Below are positions 6,261-34,849 of a stretch of DNA of 37,104 bases, piece by piece (position 1 is the first letter of the stretch; the number at the start of each line of letters is the position of its first letter). Source of the DNA: Candidatus Cloacimonadota bacterium (GTDB lineage: Bacteria; Cloacimonadota; Cloacimonadia; Cloacimonadales; Cloacimonadaceae); the NCBI GenBank assembly GCA_012522935.1, contig JAAYJN010000080.1, forward strand, positions 1-37,104, in the 5' to 3' direction. The position numbers and the translations under genes are program-made. Below the pieces are notes generated by a model. That model made no database searches, had not been told where the DNA came from, and saw nothing but the letters and a program-made list of their open reading frames with translations.

Positions 6261-6340
6261 CCTTGCTCATTAACCACCCTTGTCTCTCCCTTGTCTCGAC
6301 AAGGGTGAGACAAGGGAGAGACAAGGGTGGTTAACAGGGA
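6261..6340 (+). repeat. 80-bp palindromic element, copy A
   Basis: The element consists of a 13-base end (CCTTGCTCATTAA), two 11-base units in reverse orientation (CCACCCTTGTC, TCTCCCTTGTC), a TC spacer, three forward units (GACAAGGGTGA, GACAAGGGAGA, GACAAGGGTGG) and a 10-base end TTAACAGGGA. The arms 6270-6295 and 6309-6334 are a perfect 26-bp inverted repeat. Three other copies in the window are also exactly 80 bp. Relative to them, the central 13 bp is inverted here (2+3 units against 3+2). No coding potential is seen. Confidence 0.92.
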
Positions 6341-6405
6341 ACAGTGGACTGGGGCGTGACATTCTGCCGCAGGGGTCAGGGTTAGGCGCAGGGGTAAGGA
6401 AAATC

Positions 6406-6666
6406 GTAACCATTTGGGAACATGGGCTTTAGCCGGTTGGTTCGCCGGTTCTAACCGGTTTTTAAATCAAAGAATTACTCTTTATTTAGCATAAAATACA
6501 AAAACATAATAAATATTTGTCCTCTGAGCCTAATTTAAGAGTACGCGTAAAATACTGATGATTAAGGAATTAAAACCGACTGAAGTCGGTGAAACACCCG
6601 GCTAAAAGCCAGGGGATACGAGGCGAGCGAACCAACCGGCTAAAGCCCATGTTCCCAAATGGTTAC
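6406..6666. repeat. 261-bp element bounded by 39-bp perfect inverted repeats
   Basis: Positions 6406-6444 are the exact reverse complement of 6628-6666 (39 of 39). The arm begins GTAACCATTTGGGAACATGG and contains GGCTTTAGCCGG. The 183-base interior contains CCGGTT...AACCGG and most of a second dispersed repeat (6487-6623). There is no transposase and no obvious target duplication. The left part (6406-6470) is similar to 34434-34484. This suggests REP/BIME-like palindromes or a MITE. Confidence 0.8.
6487..6623 (+). repeat. About 140-bp dispersed repeat, copy 1
   Basis: This aligns along its length with the reverse complement of 34711-34849. The first 20 bases (TAGCATAAAATACAAAAACA) are identical. 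Other shared blocks are AATATTTGTC, CGCGTAA, CCGACTGAAGTCGG and GCCAGGGG-TAC. CCGACTGAAGTCGG is itself a palindrome of the kind found in REP sequences. No ORF is present. Confidence 0.75.
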
Positions 6667-6963
6667 ATATTTTTATCTGCAGCAATTTCCCTAATGAGTG
6701 TGCACAAAGAAGGAGATTTCAGGTTTCAGGTTTCAGGGTGGAGCTTACCCTCCCAAATCCAATGAGAATTCACCTGCAGGCATCACCCATTTATATTATT
6801 TATAACCCACTCACCCATAACAGATTACAATACCAATAAGGTCTATTTTACAGCATGGAAAAATCCAAAACCAAAAAAATAGCTTGCCCAATATGCTTAT
6901 TTATTTTATGTGGATTTCAAAATAATTATAAAGGCTTGCCCAAGGTGAGTCACAGGAGCGTTG

Positions 6964-8289
6964 ATGAGCTATAAATCGTTTCCTGGAGGGGTACATCCTC
7001 GAGACCACAAACAGTTTTCCGCAGCAGCCCCCGTGGAAGAAATACCACACCCGGCGCGTGTGGTCATTCATTTATCTCAACATATTGGATCACCTTCCAC
7101 CCCCATCGTCAAGGTGGGAGACGAAGTAAAAACAGGTCAGCTAATCGCCGAAGCTTCCGGCTTTGTTTCCATCCCCCAACACGCCTCCATCAGCGGCAAA
7201 ATCTCCAAAATAGATCGCTTTTACCACCCCACCGGCATCAAACAAGTGGCAATCGAAATCACCTCCGATGATAAAGACGAATGGGTGCAGCTGGTGGATG
7301 AAGCCGATTTTATGAATCTTTCCCCATCTGAAATGAAAGAGCGCGTGGCAGCCGCCGGCATCTGCGGCATGGGAGGTGCGGGATTTCCCACAGTGGTAAA
7401 GCTTTCCCCGCCAGAGGATAAGCCCATTGATACGGTGATCTTGAACGGCGTGGAATGCGAACCTTATCTCACTGCAGATTACCGTCTGATGCTGGAGCGC
7501 GGCGAGGATATCATCCAAGGGCTAAAGCTGATTATGAAGATGGTGAATGCCCGGCGTGGCGTGATTGGCATCGAAGCCAACAAACCTGACGCCATCGAGC
7601 TTATGCAAGGGCTTTGTGCCAATGACCCCGCTCTGGAAGTGGTGCCGCTAAAGCTCAAATACCCTCAGGGCGCAGAAAAGCAGCTGATCTATGCCGCCAC
7701 CAAGCGCAAGGTGCCCAATGCCGGCGGACTTCCCAGTGCCGTGGGAGTGGTGGTGCAAAACGTAGCCACCGCCGTGGCTATCTACGAAGCCATCCGCTAT
7801 CGCAAACCCCTGATTGAGCGTGTGATATCCGTTACCGGACGCATCGTGAAAAATCCCAAAAACCTCAAAGCTCGCATCGGCACCCCTTACAGTGAATTGG
7901 TGGATTTTTGTGGTGGGCTCACCGAGCCTGCCGGCAAATACATCTCCGGCGGACCCATGATGGGCTTTGCCATCCCCAATCTGGAAGCTCCCGTTGCCAA
8001 AGGCAGCTCCGGCCTGGTGGTTTTCGACACACGCGAAGCGCATGATTTGGAAGAAAAGGATTGCCTCCGCTGTGCCCGCTGTGTGGATGTGTGTCCCATG
8101 GACCTCATGCCCAGCCTGTTGGCAATGAATGTAAAGGCAAAGAAACTGGAAATGGCAGCCAGGCTGGGGCTGAATGATTGCATCAAATGCGGCAGTTGTG
8201 CCTACGTGTGCCCCGCCCATATTCGTTTGGTGCAATGGATAGAAACCGGCAAAGTGCGTTGGGCAGAGGCCCAGCGTAATCCAAAATAG
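6964..8289 (+). CDS. rnfC: Rnf complex subunit RnfC (NADH/FMN and Fe-S subunit)
   Basis: RnfC is the peripheral subunit that passes electrons between ferredoxin-derived clusters and NAD+. The N-terminal GGVHPRDHK and the HISGKISKI-like barrel-sandwich region are followed by the nucleotide/FMN-binding stretch (GICGMGGAGFPT, NGVECEPYLTADYRLM) and an SLBB domain. Two [4Fe-4S] motifs follow, CLRCARCVDVCP (C367, C370, C373, C377) and CIKCGSCAYVCP (C406, C409, C412, C416). The 441-residue length is normal. I chose the ATG at 6964 because AGGAG lies 5 bases upstream; the adjacent TTG at 6961 would leave only 2. It is the first gene of rnfCDGEAB, the order usual in Clostridia and Thermotogae. Confidence 0.95.
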   Translation: MSYKSFPGGVHPRDHKQFSAAAPVEEIPHPARVVIHLSQHIGSPSTPIVKVGDEVKTGQLIAEASGFVSIPQHASISGKISKIDRFYHPTGIKQVAIEITSDDKDEWVQLVDEADFMNLSPSEMKERVAAAGICGMGGAGFPTVVKLSPPEDKPIDTVILNGVECEPYLTADYRLMLERGEDIIQGLKLIMKMVNARRGVIGIEANKPDAIELMQGLCANDPALEVVPLKLKYPQGAEKQLIYAATKRKVPNAGGLPSAVGVVVQNVATAVAIYEAIRYRKPLIERVISVTGRIVKNPKNLKARIGTPYSELVDFCGGLTEPAGKYISGGPMMGFAIPNLEAPVAKGSSGLVVFDTREAHDLEEKDCLRCARCVDVCPMDLMPSLLAMNVKAKKLEMAARLGLNDCIKCGSCAYVCPAHIRLVQWIETGKVRWAEAQRNPK

Positions 8290-8303
8290 GACAGGCAAGA
8301 AAT

Positions 8304-9407
8304 ATGAAAGATAAAGTATTAGTATCGCCGGCACCCCACCTCCACGATAGCGGCAGTATCCCCAAGGTGATGTGGAATGTAGTGTTGGCTTTGGTTCCCG
8401 CGCTCATCGCAGCGGTCTATTTTTGGGGATTTAATGCGCTGCTACTCACCCTCTTGGGAGGCGTCTCCGCGGTCTTCACCGAGGCGTTGATCCAAAAGCT
8501 GCGCAAGGTGCCCATCTCCGTATCCGATGGCAGCGCCTTCCTCACCGGTATTTTGTTATCCTACAATATCCATGCCAATGCCCCTTGGTGGCTGCCCGTG
8601 GTGGGTGCCGCCTTTGCCATCGCCATTGGCAAACAGGTGTTTGGCGGCTTGGGCAACAACCCCGTCAACCCCGCTCTCTTGGGACGCGCCTTCCTCTTGG
8701 CATCCTGGCCCACCCTGATGACGGATGGCTGGATTGCCCCCAAAGGTGGAGCTTTAAGCGGCATCACCAATCTCAACCTCATCCACAGCAACCTGCAGGC
8801 GGTATCCAGCAAAGCCCACGCTCTGGTTACCGGCGCCACTCCGCTCAATATAGCCCAAAGCCTGCGGGATAGCACCTTCGTGAATAGCCTCACAGCGGAT
8901 GCCGGCACCAATATGGACCTCGCCAACCGCATCTTCACCGGCATCACCGATGGCAGCACCCTCCAAAACCTTTTCTGGGGCAATATCGGCGGCTGTATCG
9001 GCGAAGTGTCTGTATTTGCCCTGCTGATTGGCGCTGCCTGGCTCTTGTGGAAGAATATCATCGAATGGCGCATCCCCCTCTTTTACTTGGGCACCGTGGC
9101 AGTGCTCACCTTCTTTTTTGGAGCCATCCCCGGCAGCGGATTTTCCCTTTCCATCCCCATCTTCCACCTCTTTTCCGGAGGTCTCATGTTAGGTGCCTTC
9201 TTTATGGCAACGGATTATAGCACCACACCCATGACCCGCAAGGGGCGCATAATCTTTGGCATTGGCTGTGGCGTGCTCACCGTGGTAATCAGATTTGTGG
9301 GCGGCTACCCCGAGGGGGTCAGCTATTCCATCCTCCTCATGAACGTCTTCACGCCCCTCATAGACGCTCTCACCATACCAAAAGCATTCGGGAAGGTGAA
9401 AAAATGA
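8304..9407 (+). CDS. rnfD: Rnf complex subunit RnfD
   Basis: RnfD (367 residues) is the membrane subunit related to NqrB that carries covalently bound FMN and takes part in cation transport. Hydrophobic segments recur along its length, beginning VMWNVVLALVPALIAAVYFWG. The motif SDGSAFLTGILL and the flavinylation motif TGATPLN are present, with Thr179 the expected FMN attachment site. FGGLGNNPVNPALLGRAFLLASWP is highly typical of the family (shown here only as part of the call). It begins 14 bases after rnfC and its stop overlaps the rnfG start by 4 bases (ATGA), indicating tight coupling. Confidence 0.95.
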   Translation: MKDKVLVSPAPHLHDSGSIPKVMWNVVLALVPALIAAVYFWGFNALLLTLLGGVSAVFTEALIQKLRKVPISVSDGSAFLTGILLSYNIHANAPWWLPVVGAAFAIAIGKQVFGGLGNNPVNPALLGRAFLLASWPTLMTDGWIAPKGGALSGITNLNLIHSNLQAVSSKAHALVTGATPLNIAQSLRDSTFVNSLTADAGTNMDLANRIFTGITDGSTLQNLFWGNIGGCIGEVSVFALLIGAAWLLWKNIIEWRIPLFYLGTVAVLTFFFGAIPGSGFSLSIPIFHLFSGGLMLGAFFMATDYSTTPMTRKGRIIFGIGCGVLTVVIRFVGGYPEGVSYSILLMNVFTPLIDALTIPKAFGKVKK

Positions 9408-9958
9408 AGTTATATCTCAAACTTGGCTTTATCCTGCTGGTGGTCAGCGTGATTGCCACAGGCATCCTGGCTTATGTCAATTCCATCACCGCTCCCCAAA
9501 TAGAGGCTCTCAAACAAGAGGAAGCCATCAAAAGCCGTGAAGAATTGATACCCGATTCCATCTTTGAAGAGGTGGAGGTCTCCCCGGATTTCAGCTATTT
9601 TATAGCCCGCAACAAAGACACAGAGGAAATACAGGGTTATACCTTCATCGCCTCCCAAAAGGGATACAGCAACAACGTGAAGACGATGGCTGGCGTGAGT
9701 CCCGATTTCAAACTGCTTGGCATCAAAGTGGTGGAGCAATCCGAAACCCCCGGCTTGGGGGCAAATTGTACCGCCTCCACATTTACAGATCAATTCCAAG
9801 GCAAAATCTCGGAAGACCTGATGGCGGATAAGGATGGCGGCAAGATCAAAAGCCTCTCCGGCGCCACCATCACCACCCGTGCCATTGCCTCTTCCCTCAA
9901 ACAAGCCATCCAAGCCTTAGAGCAAGATGTGGTGGCAAAACAGGAGGTGCAACAATGA
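9404..9958 (+). CDS. rnfG: Rnf complex subunit RnfG (covalent FMN)
   Basis: RnfG (184 residues) has one N-terminal membrane anchor (LKLGFILLVVSVIATGILAYV) and an extracytoplasmic FMN_bind domain. The SGAT motif (SLSGATITTRAI) places the FMN-accepting threonine at Thr155. EQSETPGLGANC is also typical of NqrC/RnfG. It overlaps both neighbours by ATGA, at 9404-9407 and 9955-9958. The length and motifs are intact. Maturation should need a flavin transferase (ApbE), which is not encoded in this window. Confidence 0.95.
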   Translation: MKLYLKLGFILLVVSVIATGILAYVNSITAPQIEALKQEEAIKSREELIPDSIFEEVEVSPDFSYFIARNKDTEEIQGYTFIASQKGYSNNVKTMAGVSPDFKLLGIKVVEQSETPGLGANCTASTFTDQFQGKISEDLMADKDGGKIKSLSGATITTRAIASSLKQAIQALEQDVVAKQEVQQ

Positions 9959-10545
9959 AATTCTTTTCCGAACTCACCAAAGGCATCATCAAAGAAAACC
10001 CCATCTTTGTGATTGTCTTGGGGATGTGCCCCACGCTGGCTGTTTCCACCTCCGTGGATAACGCCCTGGGTATGGGGCTGGCAGCCACCTTTGTGCTGAT
10101 ATGTTCCAATATGATGATTTCGCTCATCAAGGGCATCGTCCCCGCCCAAATCCGCATTCCCATCTATGTGGTGGTGATTGCCGCCTTCGTCAGCATCATC
10201 GATATGGCGATGGAGGCGTATCTGCCAGACCTGCACAAAGCCCTGGGCATCTTCATCCCACTCATCGTGGTCAATTGCATCATCTTGGGGCGCGCCGAGG
10301 CTTTTGCCAGCAAAAACAACGTGCTCAATTCCATGGCAGACGGCCTGGGCATGGGCTTGGGCTTTACCCTGTCTCTCACGGTGGTAGCCACCATCCGTGA
10401 AATACTGGGCAATGGCACCTGGCTCAAAATGCAGGTGTTGCCCTCCACCTATGATCCCATGTTAGTGGCGATCCTGGCACCCGGTGCCTTCATCACCCTG
10501 GGGCTTCTGATGGCGGTCATGAATATCATCAAGGAGAAGAACTAA
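9955..10545 (+). CDS. rnfE: Rnf complex subunit RnfE
   Basis: RnfE (196 residues) is an integral membrane subunit of the RnfA/RnfE/NqrD/NqrE family with several transmembrane helices. In solved Rnf and Nqr complexes, the paired A/E subunits hold an intramembrane [2Fe-2S] cluster. The expected cysteines are present here as GMCPTLAVSTS (C25) and VVNCIILGRAEAFASKNN (C108). Its stop shares one base with the start of rnfA (TAATG). The match to the family is complete, and the subunit is distinguished from RnfA by the GRAEAFASKN segment. Confidence 0.95.
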   Translation: MKFFSELTKGIIKENPIFVIVLGMCPTLAVSTSVDNALGMGLAATFVLICSNMMISLIKGIVPAQIRIPIYVVVIAAFVSIIDMAMEAYLPDLHKALGIFIPLIVVNCIILGRAEAFASKNNVLNSMADGLGMGLGFTLSLTVVATIREILGNGTWLKMQVLPSTYDPMLVAILAPGAFITLGLLMAVMNIIKEKN

Positions 10546-11147
10546 TGGGATACCTTGGTGAAATCTTTGTGATGGCGATTACTGCCATCTTTATCCAAAA
10601 CTTCGTCCTCTCCCGCTTTTTGGGGCTTTGCCCCTATCTGGGAGTATCCAAAAAGATAGATTCCGCTTTTGGCATGGGGATGGCGGTGATCTTTGTGATG
10701 ACGCTTACCTCATCCATCACCTACCTCATCAACCGCTATCTGCTCACCGGCATGATGTATCTGCAAACCATTGCCTTTATCCTCACCATCGCCGCTCTCG
10801 TCCAATTTGTGGAGATGGTGATTCAAAAGAAGGCACCCGCCCTCTACAAATCCCTGGGCGTATATCTGCCCCTGATTACTACCAACTGTGCCGTGTTGGG
10901 TGTGGCAATCCTCAATACCACCGCCTTGCGTCAGGATGGAATCACCCCCTATAACTTCCTGGATAGCACGCTCAACGGCTTCTTCTCCGGTGTGGGTTTC
11001 ACCGTGGTGCTCTTGGCAATGGCTGGCATCAGGATGAGGCTGGAGCTGGTGAACCTGCCCAAGAGCATGAAGGGAATGCCCATTGCCCTCATCTTGGCTG
11101 GCATCATGGCGCTGGCTTTTTATGGCTTTATGGGCTTCAAAATTTAA
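10545..11147 (+). CDS. rnfA: Rnf complex subunit RnfA
   Basis: RnfA (200 residues) is the partner of RnfE in the membrane core. The conserved cluster cysteines occur in FLGLCPYLGVSKK (C29) and TTNCAVLGVAIL (C115). Hydrophobic segments span the whole length, and the VLSRFLGLCP segment is diagnostic. It is translationally coupled to rnfE by a one-base overlap and is followed by rnfB 16 bases later. Confidence 0.95.
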   Translation: MGYLGEIFVMAITAIFIQNFVLSRFLGLCPYLGVSKKIDSAFGMGMAVIFVMTLTSSITYLINRYLLTGMMYLQTIAFILTIAALVQFVEMVIQKKAPALYKSLGVYLPLITTNCAVLGVAILNTTALRQDGITPYNFLDSTLNGFFSGVGFTVVLLAMAGIRMRLELVNLPKSMKGMPIALILAGIMALAFYGFMGFKI

Positions 11148-11163
11148 GGGAGGAAACTTAATC

Positions 11164-12273
11164 ATGAATATCACATCCCTCATCCTCCTCTCCGCTTCCG
11201 GCTCTCTCATCTCCACCATCGGCACGCCTGTCCTCATTCTGGGTTGCATGGGGCTTGCCTTTGGGCTGATTTTGGCATTTGCCTCCAAAGTATTTGAAGT
11301 GGAGACAGACCCCCGCGTGCAGGAAATCACCGAAGCCCTGCCCGGTGCCAATTGCGGTGCCTGCGGCTTGCCCGGCTGTGCCGCCTATGCGGAAGCAGTT
11401 GCTCAAGGCATTGAACCCCCAAACCGCTGCGCCCCCGGCGGCGCCATCGTGGCAGTGATGGTGGCGAAATTGATGGGCATCGAAAGTGAAGCCATGCAAC
11501 AAAAAGTGGCGGTTATCCATTGCAGCTCCGGCGGTTACAACAATACCAACTGGAGATACTCCTACGAGGGAATCGAAAGCTGCAAATCCGCCGTCAATGT
11601 CTCCGGCGGACCCAATACTTGCGATTGGGGCTGCGTGGGCTTCAACGATTGTCTGCGCTCCTGCCCCTTCGACGCCATCTATCTGGATGAAAACGGCTTG
11701 CGCATCATCGATTTTGACAAATGCACCGGCTGTGGAAACTGTGTGAAAGCCTGCCCCAAAGGCATCATAGAGCTGGTGCCCATCAATCGCAACGTGTATG
11801 TGAAATGCTCCTCCAAAGCCAAGGGACCGGAAGCCAGACAGCTTTGCGGCAGCCTGCGCCCCTGCATCGGCTGTGGACTTTGTGCCAAAAAATGCCCCGT
11901 GGGCGCCATTACGATTGCCAACAACCTCGCCAGCATCGATTATGAAAAGTGTATCAATTGCGGGCTTTGCGCCACCGTGTGCCCCACCAAAGCCATTCTG
12001 GATCTGCTCAAGGATATCCGCAAAACATCCAAAATCAATCCCGAGCTCTGCATCGGCTGCACCATCTGTGCCAAACACTGCCCGGTGCACGCCATCAGCG
12101 GGGAATTGAAACATATCCACGTGGTGGATCCCAAAATCTGCGTGGGCTGTGAGGTGTGCGTGAGCAAATGCCCCACCAAAGCCATCACCATGATGGACGA
12201 TTATGAGCTGGATGGTCCCATCAAGCTGGTGCCCGTCACGCCCAAGACTCCTGCCACCAAGGCTGCAACCTAA
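11164..12273 (+). CDS. rnfB: Rnf complex subunit RnfB with extended ferredoxin array
   Basis: RnfB accepts electrons from reduced ferredoxin. I chose the ATG at 11164 (369 residues) because it has a GGGAGGAAA ribosome site and starts with a membrane anchor; an upstream in-frame ATG at 11083 lies inside rnfA. After the anchor comes the Fe-S domain PGANCGACGLPGC (C64, C67, C72, with C89). Six ferredoxin-type motifs follow: CDWGCVGFNDCLRSCP, CTGCGNCVKACP, CIGCGLCAKKCP, CINCGLCATVCP, CIGCTICAKHCP and CVGCEVCVSKCP. E. coli RsxB has far fewer, so this is a long-array form. The gene is last in the operon and a terminator follows. Confidence 0.95.
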   Translation: MNITSLILLSASGSLISTIGTPVLILGCMGLAFGLILAFASKVFEVETDPRVQEITEALPGANCGACGLPGCAAYAEAVAQGIEPPNRCAPGGAIVAVMVAKLMGIESEAMQQKVAVIHCSSGGYNNTNWRYSYEGIESCKSAVNVSGGPNTCDWGCVGFNDCLRSCPFDAIYLDENGLRIIDFDKCTGCGNCVKACPKGIIELVPINRNVYVKCSSKAKGPEARQLCGSLRPCIGCGLCAKKCPVGAITIANNLASIDYEKCINCGLCATVCPTKAILDLLKDIRKTSKINPELCIGCTICAKHCPVHAISGELKHIHVVDPKICVGCEVCVSKCPTKAITMMDDYELDGPIKLVPVTPKTPATKAAT

Positions 12274-12336: not shown

Positions 12337-12416
12337 CCTTGCCCATTAGCCTCCCTTGTCTCACCCTTGTCTCACCCTTGTCTGGACAAAGGAGAGACAA
12401 GGGTGGTTAACAGGGA
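12337..12416 (+). repeat. 80-bp palindromic element, copy B
   Basis: The element reads end 1 (CCTTGCCCATTAG), three reverse units (CCTCCCTTGTC, TCACCCTTGTC, TCACCCTTGTC), TG, two forward units (GACAAAGGAGA, GACAAGGGTGG) and end 2 (TTAACAGGGA). It has the same orientation as copy A, but the switch in unit direction lies one unit later. It sits between the rnf terminator and the promoter of the lipoprotein gene. Confidence 0.92.
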
Positions 12417-20863: not shown

Positions 20864-21109
20864 ATGGATGATATGCAGGAAAGGATGAAAGAACGCTGGG
20901 AAGAGCGTCGCAAGAAAGGTCAGAACTGGCCGCGTTTGGTGATTATGCTGATAATACTGATTGCCCTGATCGTGGCAATGAATATGCTCAGCAAAAAAAC
21001 TGCCCAGATGAAAAGCATCCAAGGCATCGAGTATATTGATTCCACCGCCGTGGAGCTGGAACCGGATGCTCCCCGGGCCACCACTCCCGAGGGAGAATCT
21101 CTGCCGTGA
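20864..21109 (+). CDS. Small single-span membrane protein
   Basis: This 81-residue protein was not recognised. It starts with a highly charged segment (MDDMQERMKERWEERRKKG), has one membrane helix (PRLVIMLIILIALIVAMNML, about residues 23-42) and a short polar, Pro-rich tail. The positive cluster before the helix predicts a cytoplasmic N-terminus. AAGGAAA precedes the ATG, 15 bases after the aminotransferase stop, so it should be co-transcribed with it. The tidy position and start support a real gene, though it might be lineage-specific. Confidence 0.7.
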   Translation: MDDMQERMKERWEERRKKGQNWPRLVIMLIILIALIVAMNMLSKKTAQMKSIQGIEYIDSTAVELEPDAPRATTPEGESLP

Positions 21110-21197
21110 GGATGGTTTTGGCAATATCCCTCGATGGCATCATCAACCTCGATGCATCCCAAAATACAATGATTACACAATTGGAGGTGTGGACATA

Positions 21198-22217
21198 ATG
21201 AACTATGCACAATCCGGCGTGGATGTGGAAGCGGGCGAAAAAGCAGTCCGCAACATCAAGACACTCGTAAGCCGCAGCTACAACCCCAATGTGTTGAGCC
21301 AATTAGGCAGCTTTGGTGGCCTCTTTAGGCTGGATTTGAAACAGCACCCACGCCCCGTGTTGGTCTCCAGCACAGACGGCGTGGGCACCAAGCTGATGGT
21401 GGCTATCATGGCACAAAAGTATGACACCATCGGGCAAGACCTGGTAAATCACTGTGTGAACGACATCTTAGTGCAAGGCGCAGAGCCTCTATTCTTTTTG
21501 GATTATATTGGCATCAACAGGATGGACGGCGAGATGATAAGCGGCCTCATAGAAGGCATGACCAACGCTTGCGTAGCCAATGGCTGTGCCCTGATAGGCG
21601 GTGAAATGGCAGAAATGCCCGCCATCTATCAGCCGGGTGATTTTGACCTGGTGGGCACAATCGTGGGCGTGGTGGATGAAACCAAGGTGATTACCGGCGA
21701 CAAGGTGAGCCAGCGCGATATCTTGATTGGCATTCCCTCCAGCGGTTTGCACACCAACGGCTATTCCTTGGCACGTGCCATCGTCTTTGACAAGCTGGGA
21801 TTAACCGTGGATAGCTATGTTTCAGAGCTGGAAGCCACAGTGGGGGAACTGCTTTTGAGCGTTCACCTCAGCTATCTGCCGCTGTTCAAACCAGTGCTGT
21901 CCCATCCCGGTTTGCACGGCTTGGCTCATATCACAGGTGGCGGCATAGCAGGAAACCTGAAACGCATCATTCCCCAAGGACTTTCCGCCTACGTAACTTA
22001 CCCCATCAGCGAGATCAGCCCCCTCTTCCAATGGCTGCAATCCGGCGGCGGCATCTCCGATGATGAAATGCGCAAAGCCTTCAACCTGGGCATCGGAATG
22101 ATTGCCGTGGTGGATGAAAATAGCGCCCAAGAGATGCTGAACGTAACCGGCGGAGTGATGATTGGCGAAATAGTGGACGCTCGGGATGGAGACGACCTCG
22201 TTCGTTTTATTGATTAA
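21198..22217 (+). CDS. purM: Phosphoribosylformylglycinamidine cyclo-ligase (AIR synthetase)
   Basis: PurM closes the imidazole ring of aminoimidazole ribotide in purine synthesis. I chose the ATG at 21198 (339 residues, MNYAQSGVDVEAGEKAVRNI), which has GGAGGT upstream and is the standard family start; the frame is open further upstream but there overlaps the previous gene. Motifs include GVGTKLMVA, DTIGQDLVNHCVNDILVQGA, GGEMAEMPAIYQPGDFDLVG, PSSGLHTNGYSLAR and HITGGGIAGNLKRI, all intact. No other purine gene is adjacent. 80-bp element C begins 23 bases after the stop. Confidence 0.95.
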   Translation: MNYAQSGVDVEAGEKAVRNIKTLVSRSYNPNVLSQLGSFGGLFRLDLKQHPRPVLVSSTDGVGTKLMVAIMAQKYDTIGQDLVNHCVNDILVQGAEPLFFLDYIGINRMDGEMISGLIEGMTNACVANGCALIGGEMAEMPAIYQPGDFDLVGTIVGVVDETKVITGDKVSQRDILIGIPSSGLHTNGYSLARAIVFDKLGLTVDSYVSELEATVGELLLSVHLSYLPLFKPVLSHPGLHGLAHITGGGIAGNLKRIIPQGLSAYVTYPISEISPLFQWLQSGGGISDDEMRKAFNLGIGMIAVVDENSAQEMLNVTGGVMIGEIVDARDGDDLVRFID

Positions 22218-22240
22218 AATATGCTTACACACCTCCTTCC

Positions 22241-22320
22241 TGCCTGTTACCCTCCTTTGTGCCTCCTTTGTCCAGACAAGGGTGAGACAAGGGAGAGACA
22301 AGGGTGGTTAATAAGGAAGC
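22241..22320 (-). repeat. 80-bp palindromic element, copy C
   Basis: Read on the plus strand: end 2 (TGCCTGTTAC), two reverse units (CCTCCTTTGTG, CCTCCTTTGTC), CA, three forward units (GACAAGGGTGA, GACAAGGGAGA, GACAAGGGTGG) and end 1 (TTAATAAGGAAGC). It is therefore inverted relative to copies A and B. This is the most diverged copy, yet it is still exactly 80 bp. It follows purM and no separate terminator is visible, so it may help end that transcript. Confidence 0.88.
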
Positions 22321-32131: not shown

Positions 32132-32158
32132 GGTTAATTAGACTACATGGAGGAACCA

Positions 32159-34321
32159 ATGAAAAAACTGTTAATTGTCCTGCTGACAATTGGTCTCTTG
32201 CTTAGCGTGGCGTATGCCAAGGAAATGCAAGTAAGCACAAATCGGAAGCCTCTTGAATCCCCACAGGGTTTCAGGATGCCTCAGACCCGTAACACCCCCG
32301 AATATACATTCAGCAAACAACCCGTTGCGATCATGACCAGCTATTATGACTACATGATCGGTTCATACAACGGCTTGCCTCTCAGAGTGATCCCCTCTTC
32401 TGAAGGTGGCGGATACTTTATGACCTACCACGGCCGTCGTCAGGCTACTGGCGTAAGACGTGTGTTTTATTCCTATTTGGATGCCAATGGCAACGTGGTA
32501 TCAAACAACGAAATCACAAACGTCCAAAACAACGAAGGTTATCCTTCCGTATCCGTTGACCCCGTATCGGGCAAACCCATGTATGCCTGGCACGCCAATA
32601 CAGACACTGATGCCGAGCTGGAAGTCCAGTTTGTTACAGACGCCTTCTTGGGCGGATTCTCCGGATTGTGGAACGATATCCAAGTGATTATCGATAACCC
32701 CACAGAAGTGACCCACCCTGATGGCACAGTCACCACCCACAGCGAATTCATCTGGCCCACAGTGCAGATCGGACCCTCTCCCATCGCCGGCAAACGCAGA
32801 GTGTATGTGATTGCCCGTAACGCTGAAACTGCCACTTATGGTCCCTCCGAAAACCCCCTTATCGCCTTTGCCGATTTTGACGGTGACGATATTGAGGGCG
32901 GAATCCCCTTCGTTTGGAGCTATACCAGCATCCCGGAAATGGACCAATGGAACGTGGACGCAGAATGGCGCAGACCCTTCCACGCTCTTACCACAGATAA
33001 TGCAGGCAACCTCTACTATGCTGGCTATCACTTTGCCACCGAAGCAGATGGTGATACCTCAATCGATGAGGAAGACCTCGATATCTTTATGTGCCCAAAC
33101 TATGGTGAAGGCACCTGGACACGTCTCAGCTTCTGGGACAAACTGCCCGCTTGGAACCCTCCCACAGGGCCGAACAACCCCGTCGGCTATTTTGAAGACA
33201 GCGATACCGGTCAACCCTATCTGGACAGTCAGCTTACCTTCAATATTGCCAATAGCTCTCACCTCAATGCCTCTGTAGACCAATATGGCAGAGTCCACGT
33301 ACTGGCTGTCTATGCCCTTTCCACATACAACGGATACTACTATCCCAATATCCAGTTTGTGAAAGAATTTGTATTTGACCCTGCCACCCAGGAAATCACC
33401 GTAAACGAAATCTATCCCCAGAAGCCTGAAGATGATAACTACAACGAATACTTCATGCCTTGGGATTTTGAAGCTCCCTACGGTGAAGTGGACGACTTTT
33501 ATGTCTCTGGAGATCAAACAGCTCCCATGATGGTCACAGACTTCCCCTTCCCTCACTGGGATCAGAGCGCACACTCAGACGCCATGTTGTTCCACTACAA
33601 CAACGTCAAAATCAGTGATGCAAACGAAGAGGGAATGATGGTTGCCGTGTGGCAAAACTCCTACCGTGCACGTAGTTACAACGAATACAACGACGAAGAT
33701 TTCGCAGCTTTTGCAAACACTCCCGAAATCTGGATGTCCGTATCCTCAAACAACGGTAACGAATGGAGCGAGCCCATCGTGCTGAACAATGTGGAAACCC
33801 CCGAATTTGCCGACATCAAACCCATGTGGGTCTATCCTGCAGACCAGGTGCTCTTTACCGGAATGCAAGGACAAAACAAGGTTGGTAAAGTGGGAATCAT
33901 GTTCTACAACGATTTCACCTGGGGCTCAAACGCCATCGATCCCCCATACCACGTCAACCCTGACGGCGGTGATGTGATGTTTATGGAGCTGCAAGTGGTA
34001 TTCCCCTACCACCCCAATGCCGACGAAACTGCTGTAACCCCCAGCATCAGCCTGCTCAACCAGAACTTCCCCAACCCCTTCAACCCCAGCACCACCATTA
34101 GCTACACAATGAACAAGGCTGCACACGCAAACGTATCCATCTACAACGTAAAAGGTCAGCTCATCAATACCCTCGTGAACGAAAACAAGGGCTTTGGAAC
34201 TCACAGCGTTGTCTGGAACGGAACCGACACCAAGGGCAACACCGTGCCCAGCGGTATCTATTTCTACCGTTTCACCACAGACAACCACACTGAAACCAAG
34301 AAAATGATGCTGATGAAATAA
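32159..34321 (+). CDS. T9SS-sorted secreted protein
   Basis: I chose the ATG at 32159 (720 residues), which has GGAGG upstream and starts a signal peptide (MKKLLIVLLTIGLLLSVAYA); a further in-frame ATG at 32147 lacks a site. The mature part is beta-rich, without a recognised catalytic motif, and has repeated aromatic, acidic stretches as in beta-propeller or sialidase-like surface proteins (EPIVLNNVETPEFADIKPMW). An acidic loop DGDTSIDEED occurs at 297-306. The tail is a classic T9SS type A domain: NQNFPNPFNPSTTISYTMNK, VSIYNVKGQLINTLV, VPSGIYFYRF and final KKMMLMK. It closes the operon and is followed by a strong terminator. Function unknown. Confidence 0.88.
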   Translation: MKKLLIVLLTIGLLLSVAYAKEMQVSTNRKPLESPQGFRMPQTRNTPEYTFSKQPVAIMTSYYDYMIGSYNGLPLRVIPSSEGGGYFMTYHGRRQATGVRRVFYSYLDANGNVVSNNEITNVQNNEGYPSVSVDPVSGKPMYAWHANTDTDAELEVQFVTDAFLGGFSGLWNDIQVIIDNPTEVTHPDGTVTTHSEFIWPTVQIGPSPIAGKRRVYVIARNAETATYGPSENPLIAFADFDGDDIEGGIPFVWSYTSIPEMDQWNVDAEWRRPFHALTTDNAGNLYYAGYHFATEADGDTSIDEEDLDIFMCPNYGEGTWTRLSFWDKLPAWNPPTGPNNPVGYFEDSDTGQPYLDSQLTFNIANSSHLNASVDQYGRVHVLAVYALSTYNGYYYPNIQFVKEFVFDPATQEITVNEIYPQKPEDDNYNEYFMPWDFEAPYGEVDDFYVSGDQTAPMMVTDFPFPHWDQSAHSDAMLFHYNNVKISDANEEGMMVAVWQNSYRARSYNEYNDEDFAAFANTPEIWMSVSSNNGNEWSEPIVLNNVETPEFADIKPMWVYPADQVLFTGMQGQNKVGKVGIMFYNDFTWGSNAIDPPYHVNPDGGDVMFMELQVVFPYHPNADETAVTPSISLLNQNFPNPFNPSTTISYTMNKAAHANVSIYNVKGQLINTLVNENKGFGTHSVVWNGTDTKGNTVPSGIYFYRFTTDNHTETKKMMLMK

Positions 34322-34342: not shown

Positions 34343-34376
34343 AAAAAGCCCCCGACACTCCGTTGGGGGCTTTTTT
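34343..34376 (+). terminator. Strong Rho-independent terminator of the TonB/T9SS operon
   Basis: AAAAAGCCCCC (34343-34353) and GGGGGCTTTTT (34365-34375) pair perfectly over 11 bp around an 11-base loop, followed by a T run. It lies 22 bases after the stop at 34321. Confidence 0.92.
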
Positions 34377-34418
34377 AGAGGCCAGAGGTTAGAGGCCAGA
34401 GGTTAGAGGTTAGGGGGA

Positions 34419-34485: not shown

Positions 34486-34629
34486 AAAGGACTTATAGGA
34501 TTTAGGGATCAGGTTCCAGGGGTCAGGGAACAGAGATTAGAGGCCAGAGGTTAGAGGAGCGGCGTCTCGCCGCTTGTGCTGAAACCTGAAACCTGGCACC
34601 TGAACCCTGCGCCACCTCCGGCTGGCGCT

Positions 34630-34709
34630 TCCCTGTTAACCACCCTTGTCTCTCCTTTGTCTCGACAAGGGTGAGACAAGGGTGGTACAAGGGTGGCTAA
34701 TGGGCAAGG
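34630..34709 (-). repeat. 80-bp palindromic element, copy D
   Basis: Read on the plus strand: end 2 (TCCCTGTTAA), two reverse units (CCACCCTTGTC, TCTCCTTTGTC), TC, three forward units (GACAAGGGTGA, GACAAGGGTGG, TACAAGGGTGG) and end 1 (CTAATGGGCAAGG). It is inverted relative to A and B. Its end 1 is one base from the second dispersed repeat at 34711. Confidence 0.92.
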
Positions 34710-34710
34710 C

Positions 34711-34849
34711 GTCTTGTACCCCCTGGCTTCAGACGGGAGTTTCGCCGACTTCAGTCGGCTTTATGTCCCTATATTATCAATGCCTTACGCGCATTCATGA
34801 CTTGAGCTGATATGACAAATATTGATTGCTGTTTTTGTATTTTATGCTA
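34711..34849 (-). repeat. About 140-bp dispersed repeat, copy 2
   Basis: This aligns with the reverse complement of 6487-6623, sharing TAGCATAAAATACAAAAACA exactly and the blocks CCGACTGAAGTCGG and GCCAGGGG-TAC. It adjoins element D. The stretch at 34819-34840 also resembles 12437-12458 next to element B (18 of 22), perhaps an AT-rich promoter-like segment. Confidence 0.75.

What the first reader, a model, noticed from the sequence alone, without database searches (positions are those of the whole stretch)
6261..6340. Four-copy, exactly 80-bp dispersed palindromic element built from 11-bp units
Copies at 6261-6340, 12337-12416 (one orientation) and 22241-22320, 34630-34709 (the other) are all 80 bp without indels. 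Each has five 11-base units of the GACAAGGGTGA type, some in direct and some in reverse orientation, around a 2-base spacer. They lie between two different ends (about CCTTGCCCATTAG and TTAACAGGGA) that fix the orientation. All copies are intergenic, and three follow the 3' end of a gene or operon. The fixed length despite sequence drift suggests selection on structure. An 11-bp period is close to one helical turn, so an array of protein sites is as plausible as an RNA hairpin. I know of no named family that fits.
Basis: seen in the sequence. Interest (0 to 1): 0.75.

Follow-up and report, generated by a model that had tools for sequence, protein, structure and literature searches.

The report
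Lineage-specific 81-bp palindromic mobile repeat
A short, hairpin-shaped piece of DNA with no gene of its own has spread to well over a hundred places between the genes of two sister species of uncultured Cloacimonadota bacteria; it behaves like a parasitic mobile repeat, but it has an unusually rigid design of five 11-letter units inside matching ends.

Summary
In detail: four 80-bp copies, each with five 11-bp units (3|2 or 2|3) around a 2-bp spacer. Extended, the conserved unit is 81 bp (CTTGCCCATTAG…TTAACAGGGAAG). Its two "different" ends are variants of one terminal inverted repeat, and the core can be inverted relative to them. The source genome holds about 125 copies and a 94%-identical sister species about 80. 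The signature is absent from the other 123 Cloacimonadota genomes tested. End-to-end length is quantised: 100 copies of 81 bp, 2 of 70 and 1 of 92. A second subfamily (91 bp; about 20 copies) shares the ends and the exact 11-bp register of TTG/CAA but has otherwise different units. Pairing shows no covariation, orthologous copies diverge as fast as their flanks, orientation to genes is random, and convergent gaps are modestly enriched. So the fixed length reflects recent amplification from a founder, not demonstrable selection on an RNA. Best reading: a MITE-like, non-autonomous palindromic element amplified just before the two species split and mobilised by an unidentified enzyme. No target duplication, empty site or autonomous partner was found, and REP/RAYT membership fails. 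New variant of a known kind; moderate interest.

The parts
6262..6342 (+). copy 1 of the 81-bp palindromic element; oriented by its ends its core is 2|3 (units 6274-6284, 6285-6295 | spacer 6296-6297 | 6298-6308, 6309-6319, 6320-6330), i.e. core flipped relative to copies 2-4
   Evidence: sequence; E=1e-28 to 1e-31 matches to other copies in the genome
12338..12418 (+). copy 2; core 3|2 (three units 12350-12382, spacer 12383-12384, two units 12385-12406); 64 bp after the stop of ORF 11083-12273
   Evidence: sequence
22239..22319 (-). copy 3; core 3|2 read on the - strand (+ strand: two units 22251-22272, spacer 22273-22274, three units 22275-22307); just after the stop of ORF 21036-22217; orthologous copy in the sister species (L131:4180) with 3 of 80 differences
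34628..34708 (-). copy 4; core 3|2 read on the - strand (+ strand: two units 34640-34661, spacer 34662-34663, three units 34664-34696); after the stop of ORF 32147-34321
6262..6275 (+). left terminal inverted repeat of copy 1 (CTTGCTCATTAACC; consensus CTTSCYYRTTARCC)
   Evidence: profile of 79 copies and shared by the second subfamily
6329..6342 (-). right terminal inverted repeat of copy 1 (GGTTAACAGGGAAC; consensus GGYTAAYRGGSAAG, reverse complement of the left one)
   Evidence: profile, end tabulation

Best explanation
A non-autonomous, MITE-like palindromic mobile element. Shown: about 125 dispersed intergenic copies that share 12-14-bp terminal inverted repeats and a core of inverted 11-bp units; restriction to two sister species; a second subfamily with the same ends and the same 11-bp register; copies at orthologous sites in both species; core inversion at one orthologous site. 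Inferred: the ends (perhaps with the 11-bp-phased TTG/CAA units) were recognised by an enzyme supplied in trans, which copied the element into intergenic DNA in the ancestor of the two species after it separated from the rest of the genus. Most copies then became fixed and have since decayed neutrally, with occasional inversion of the core or the whole element by recombination or replication switching between its arms, and rare gain or loss of one 11-bp unit. Any effect on neighbouring genes (3'-end hairpin, transcription roadblock) is incidental. The mobilising enzyme is unknown.
For: Copy number: 378 pattern hits in the genome and 245 in the sister, control 0-1 per strand; at 3.0 hits per copy this is about 125 and 81. 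Distribution: none in the other congeners or family/order relatives; a unit-sequence-free signature occurs only in these two of 125 phylum genomes; in the named genome collection only in JAAYQD01, a Cloacimonadota MAG. Anatomy: conservation begins and ends sharply at CTT...AAG with arbitrary DNA outside; lengths 70/81/92 bp, subfamily 2 91 bp. Two subfamilies with common ends but different units is what a shared trans-acting enzyme predicts. 53 of 58 copies intergenic although gaps make up only about 7.5% of the sequence; convergent gaps hold 16/50 copies against 16% of gap length, p=0.005; the same bias is read as the mark of mobile parasitic repeats in pneumococcus (PMC3049150). Main-subfamily paralogues differ by 5.0% in the core, orthologues by 5.1%, dating the burst near the species split. 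No covariation; strand relative to tandem genes 11:11. Core flipped at one orthologous site, L174:14646 vs L226:1166.
Against: No clean empty site was found: every orthologous site resolved is occupied in both species. No target-site duplication stands out for any boundary and length tested. No free-standing ends or longer element with the same ends in the roughly 1 Mb of sequence held, and only one DDE (PF01609) hit in each genome, no IS256-type, and one IS200-type transposase that is flanked by another repeat. Transposition itself is therefore inferred, not observed.
Confidence: 0.74

Rival explanations
1. A host-selected element: an RNA hairpin at gene ends (mRNA stabiliser, terminator or roadblock) or an 11-bp-phased binding array for a nucleoid or regulatory protein, kept by selection.
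For: Three of four window copies follow gene 3' ends; convergent gaps are enriched; the 11-bp register of TTG/CAA is the same in two subfamilies; some copies fold with about -40 to -60 kcal/mol.
Against: Paired columns show no excess complementarity or compensation and several are mismatched in most copies (A-A 98 of 117, G-G 57 of 117); orthologous copies diverge like their flanks; strand relative to genes 11:11 and nearest gene end 28 three-prime vs 17 five-prime, p=0.14; absent from every relative.
Confidence: 0.12
2. A REP-type repeat dispersed by a Y1 (IS200/IS605-like) tyrosine transposase, which would explain the absence of target duplications.
For: One IS200/IS605-family Y1 gene lies about 0.6 kb from a copy (L220); no target duplication found.
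Against: That gene is flanked in inverted orientation by another repeat (GAGTCTCGGAGAGACG...TTCAGGTCAAA), not by this element; the sister species has about 80 copies but no Y1 match; no GTAG-like tetranucleotide and no conserved 5' target; 81 bp instead of 20-40 bp.
Confidence: 0.1
3. An intrastrand-triplex motif like the E. coli TM element (one pyrimidine and two purine segments), which the odd 3|2 unit number resembles.
For: E. coli TM consensus is CCCTCNCCCN3-6GGGNGAGGGN3GGGNGAGGG, intergenic, with unstable surroundings (PMC4666352); here too a hairpin has one spare unit and flanks are rearranged between species.
Against: Units contain C and T in the purine strand and are direct, not mirror, repeats (GACAAGGGTGA reversed matches itself at 1 of 11 positions), so a third strand cannot align; subfamily 2 has 2|2 units.
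Confidence: 0.02
4. Assembly artefact or chance.
For: The source is a 170-contig MAG and some contigs end in the element.
Against: Independent sister MAG with orthologous copies embedded in colinear flanks; reversed-pattern controls near zero.
Confidence: 0.01

Closest known systems
Prokaryotic MITEs in general (review PMC10969869), e.g. QMITE, Chunjie, Correia elements
   Same: Short, non-coding, terminal inverted repeats, intergenic, over 100 copies, hairpin-forming; Correia elements are also reported to invert (PMC10969869)
   Different: No target duplications, no parental IS found; nearly fixed length whereas QMITE and Chunjie copies vary widely; core is a phased array of 11-bp inverted units; only MITE-like, not filed as a member
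BOX / RUP / SPRITE repeats of Streptococcus pneumoniae (PMC3049150)
   Same: About 100 dispersed copies, unit-built (BOX), over-represented between convergent genes, old bursts with little present activity; empty sites also missing for SPRITE
   Different: Unrelated sequence; BOX modules repeat a variable number of times, here the unit number is almost invariant and units are 11 bp in inverted orientation
REP/BIME with RAYT transposases (PMC2817692)
   Same: High-copy extragenic palindromes
   Different: 81 bp instead of 20-40, no GTAG tetranucleotide, not flanking a Y1 gene
E. coli TM intrastrand-triplex repeat (PMC4666352)
   Same: Intergenic palindrome with an odd extra unit; unstable surroundings
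   Different: Units not homopurine nor mirror-symmetric; 11-bp spacing; inverted terminal ends

Membership tests
MITE | under 500 bp and no coding capacity | tested here: met
   81 bp, palindromic
MITE | terminal inverted repeats of about 4-30 bp | tested here: met
   12-14 bp CTTSCYYRTTARCC at both ends, shared by two subfamilies
MITE | flanking target-site duplication, at least in young copies | tested here: not met
   26x26 boundary offsets and lengths 2-10 on 79 copies; best 5 matches vs 0.4 expected among about 6,000 tests. Copies are about 5% diverged, so decay is possible
MITE | related autonomous element with the same ends | tested here: inconclusive
   none in the roughly 1 Mb held; whole genome searched only for end pairs 45-75 bp apart and for two DDE families
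MITE | mobility shown by empty sites | tested here: inconclusive
   orthologous sites resolved in the sister species are all filled; mobility is inferred from dispersal and lineage restriction
REP/BIME | 20-40 bp unit with GTAG-like 5' tetranucleotide | tested here: not met
   81 bp; no conserved tetranucleotide outside the ends
REP/BIME | RAYT gene flanked by the repeat in inverted orientation | tested here: not met
   the only Y1 gene (L220) is flanked by another repeat
E. coli TM / intrastrand triplex | homopurine/homopyrimidine segments able to form a mirror-symmetric third strand | tested here: not met
   unit GACAAGGGTGA has C and T and is not mirror-symmetric (sequence; for the consensus)
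Known RNA families (Rfam 15) | match at the gathering score | tested here: not met
   0 matches in the window

The most novel reading that the evidence does not exclude
The core is not filler but a multimerised recognition array: 11-bp (about one helical turn) phased TTG/CAA half-sites in inverted orientation, read together with the ends by a mobilising enzyme or DNA-binding protein. That requirement would explain why two subfamilies with otherwise different units keep the same register, and why length changes only in whole 11-bp steps. It would be a class of miniature element whose internal sequence is a helically phased binding array.
Probability: 0.22. Interest if true: 0.6.

Novelty: new variant of a known kind. 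Interest (0 to 1): 0.42.

Why it matters
In the papers searched here no description of a dispersed repeat family in Cloacimonadota turned up. If mobile, this is a lineage marker that amplified between two closely related species, a natural experiment in how short palindromes spread and decay. The rigid 11-bp design, the shared ends of two subfamilies and the core inversion at an orthologous site give concrete handles for finding the mobilising enzyme. It also warns that assemblies and operon-end annotation in these genomes are affected by over a hundred hairpins.

Tried and rejected
Rfam search of the window: nothing. Viral contigs, phages and plasmids: no match. Target-site-duplication scan: no credible signal. 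Search for free-standing ends: only chance hits in coding DNA, except the second subfamily. Transposase searches (Y1, DDE_Tnp_1, Transposase_mut): no gene bracketed by the element. Concatenated-flank search for empty sites in the sister genome: resolved sites filled, others broken across contigs. Core 'flip' as an explanation of all 2|3 copies: partly an orientation artefact of my first scoring; after orienting by the core, the genuine excess of reversed ends is 12 against 76. My automatic 3|3 class was inflated by a loose regular expression; the true 3|3 copy is G000:C6:7627 and 2|2 copies include L126, L163, L166 and G000:C152:47257. Literature searches for Cloacimonas palindromic repeats: none.

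Full report
OBSERVATION. All four copies are present at the stated coordinates, 80 bp each, 61-75 of 80 positions identical pairwise, with five 11-bp units and a 2-bp spacer. They lie between ORFs; three follow a gene's 3' end (stops at 12273, 22217, 34321) and 6261 lies between divergent ORFs. Rfam has no match.

WHERE IT OCCURS. The window is one contig of a 2.13-Mb, 170-contig draft genome. A two-unit pattern hits it 378 times and a congener, G004, 245 times, with reversed-pattern controls of 0-1 per strand. At 3.0 hits per copy this is about 125 and 81 copies. Four other congeners and 35 family and order relatives have none. G004 shares about 94% DNA identity with the source genome, the others 72-75%. 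A pattern that fixes only the inner ends and the spacing of TTG/CAA, not the unit sequence, occurs in these two genomes and in none of the other 123 in the phylum. Phage, plasmid and viral collections have none.

ANATOMY. In 79 copies, conservation starts abruptly at CTT and stops at AAG, 81 bp, with weak CCCACTN / NAGTGGG outside and arbitrary DNA beyond. Left CTTGCCCATTAGCC and right GGTTAACAGGGAAG are two versions of one terminal inverted repeat; some copies carry the same version at both ends. Oriented by the core, 76 copies have the AG version left and the TTAA version right, 12 have the reverse, and 20 have matching ends. End-to-end lengths in all held sequence are 70 (2), 81 (100) and 92 (1) bp for this core and 91 (7) for the second subfamily; a genome-wide end-pair search allowing any spacing from 45 to 75 bp found only these lengths.

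SECOND SUBFAMILY. Beside a DDE transposase in G004, a palindrome with the same ends (ATTAG...CTAACAGGGAAGGAG) but a core of GTTGYGATRCC-type 11-mers appeared. A palindrome scan and a genus search show roughly 20 copies in each of the same two genomes; the few hits in other congeners are single one-mismatch matches. Aligned without gaps from the ends, the TTG (left) and CAA (right) of every unit fall at exactly the same positions in the two subfamilies, although most other unit positions differ. It has two units per arm and a central stem-loop.

HOW OLD, AND UNDER WHAT CONSTRAINT. Of 27 matched pairs between the two genomes, 21 same-orientation pairs differ by 7.0% over 80 bp and 5.1% over the inner 58 bp; flanks are typically 92-97% identical. 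Main-subfamily paralogues in one genome differ by 5.0% over the same inner 58 bp, so the last burst was about as old as the species split. No site was cleanly filled in one species and empty in the other. Across 117 distinct copies the palindromic pairing is complementary in 77.2% of cells against 78.4% after shuffling partners: no compensatory evolution. Orientation relative to tandem neighbours is 11:11; convergent gaps hold 16 of 50 copies against 16% of gap length, p=0.005; gene calls here were a longest-ORF proxy.

REARRANGEMENT. At one orthologous site (L174:14646 vs L226:1166) both ends keep their orientation but the core is reversed, 3|2 against 2|3. At L128:644 vs L141:3776 the whole element is reversed next to an identical right flank, though other flank DNA also changed, so an independent insertion cannot be excluded. 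One G004 contig joins the neighbour of one copy (L175) to the neighbour of window copy 34630: recombination between copies, or misassembly.

MECHANISM. The inverted ends, the dispersal, the lineage restriction and the sharing of ends by two different cores are what a non-autonomous element mobilised in trans predicts. The transposition step is inferred: there is no empty site, no target duplication, and no element with these ends that carries a gene in the sequence held. The single IS200-type gene is bracketed by another repeat. Fixed length needs no selection: descent from one founder plus a low indel rate suffices, and the exceptions are whole-unit changes. The maintained 11-bp register across two subfamilies is the one feature that founder effect alone explains poorly, unless the subfamilies are simply homologous throughout; it is the basis of the novel case.

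COMPARISON. It works like a MITE and shows the convergent-gap bias reported for pneumococcal BOX, RUP and SPRITE repeats (PMC3049150); inversion is also reported for Correia elements (PMC10969869). Target duplications were looked for and not found, so it is called MITE-like and not filed as a MITE. REP and triplex (TM) membership fail on tested features.

VERDICT. A real, high-copy, previously unnamed palindromic repeat; a new variant of a known kind; its function is most likely selfish.

Noticed in passing
L220 (source genome contig C77), Y1 gene at about 1425-1872, repeats at about 1070-1345 and 2025-2200: An IS200/IS605-family Y1 transposase gene flanked on both sides, in inverted orientation, by several copies of GAGTCTCGGAGAGACG...TTCAGGTCAAA; at least 19 such repeats in 674 kb of this genome and none in the small congener loci checked. 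Looks like a REP/RAYT-type arrangement of its own.
   Followed up: partly
window about 6428-6670 and 34710-34849: A different dispersed repeat of about 100-200 bp (ACCGACTGAAGTCGG...CCGGCTAAAGCCAGGGGATACAAG type) lies next to copies 1 and 4; similar stretches match elsewhere in both genomes and seemingly in other congeners.
   Followed up: no
window 34375-34413 and many intergenic flanks: Degenerate tandem repeats of TTAGAGGCCAGAGG and CCTGTCCCCTGACCCCTG type and small GC-rich hairpins (GGGCGCTTCGCGCCC, GCGCAGCGTGCG) fill intergenic DNA and often abut the element.
   Followed up: no
L144:3863 (sister genome C72) versus window 34630 and L175:8073: Synteny break exactly at a copy: one side matches L175, the other the window; recombination between copies or misassembly.
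   Followed up: partly
L245 about 1470-2540: Complete DDE (PF01609) transposase gene in the sister genome, close to one copy of each palindrome subfamily but not bracketed by their ends.
   Followed up: partly
window 6961-11147: Rnf electron-transport operon (RnfC, RnfD-type, Rnf-Nqr subunits) followed directly by copy 2.
   Followed up: no
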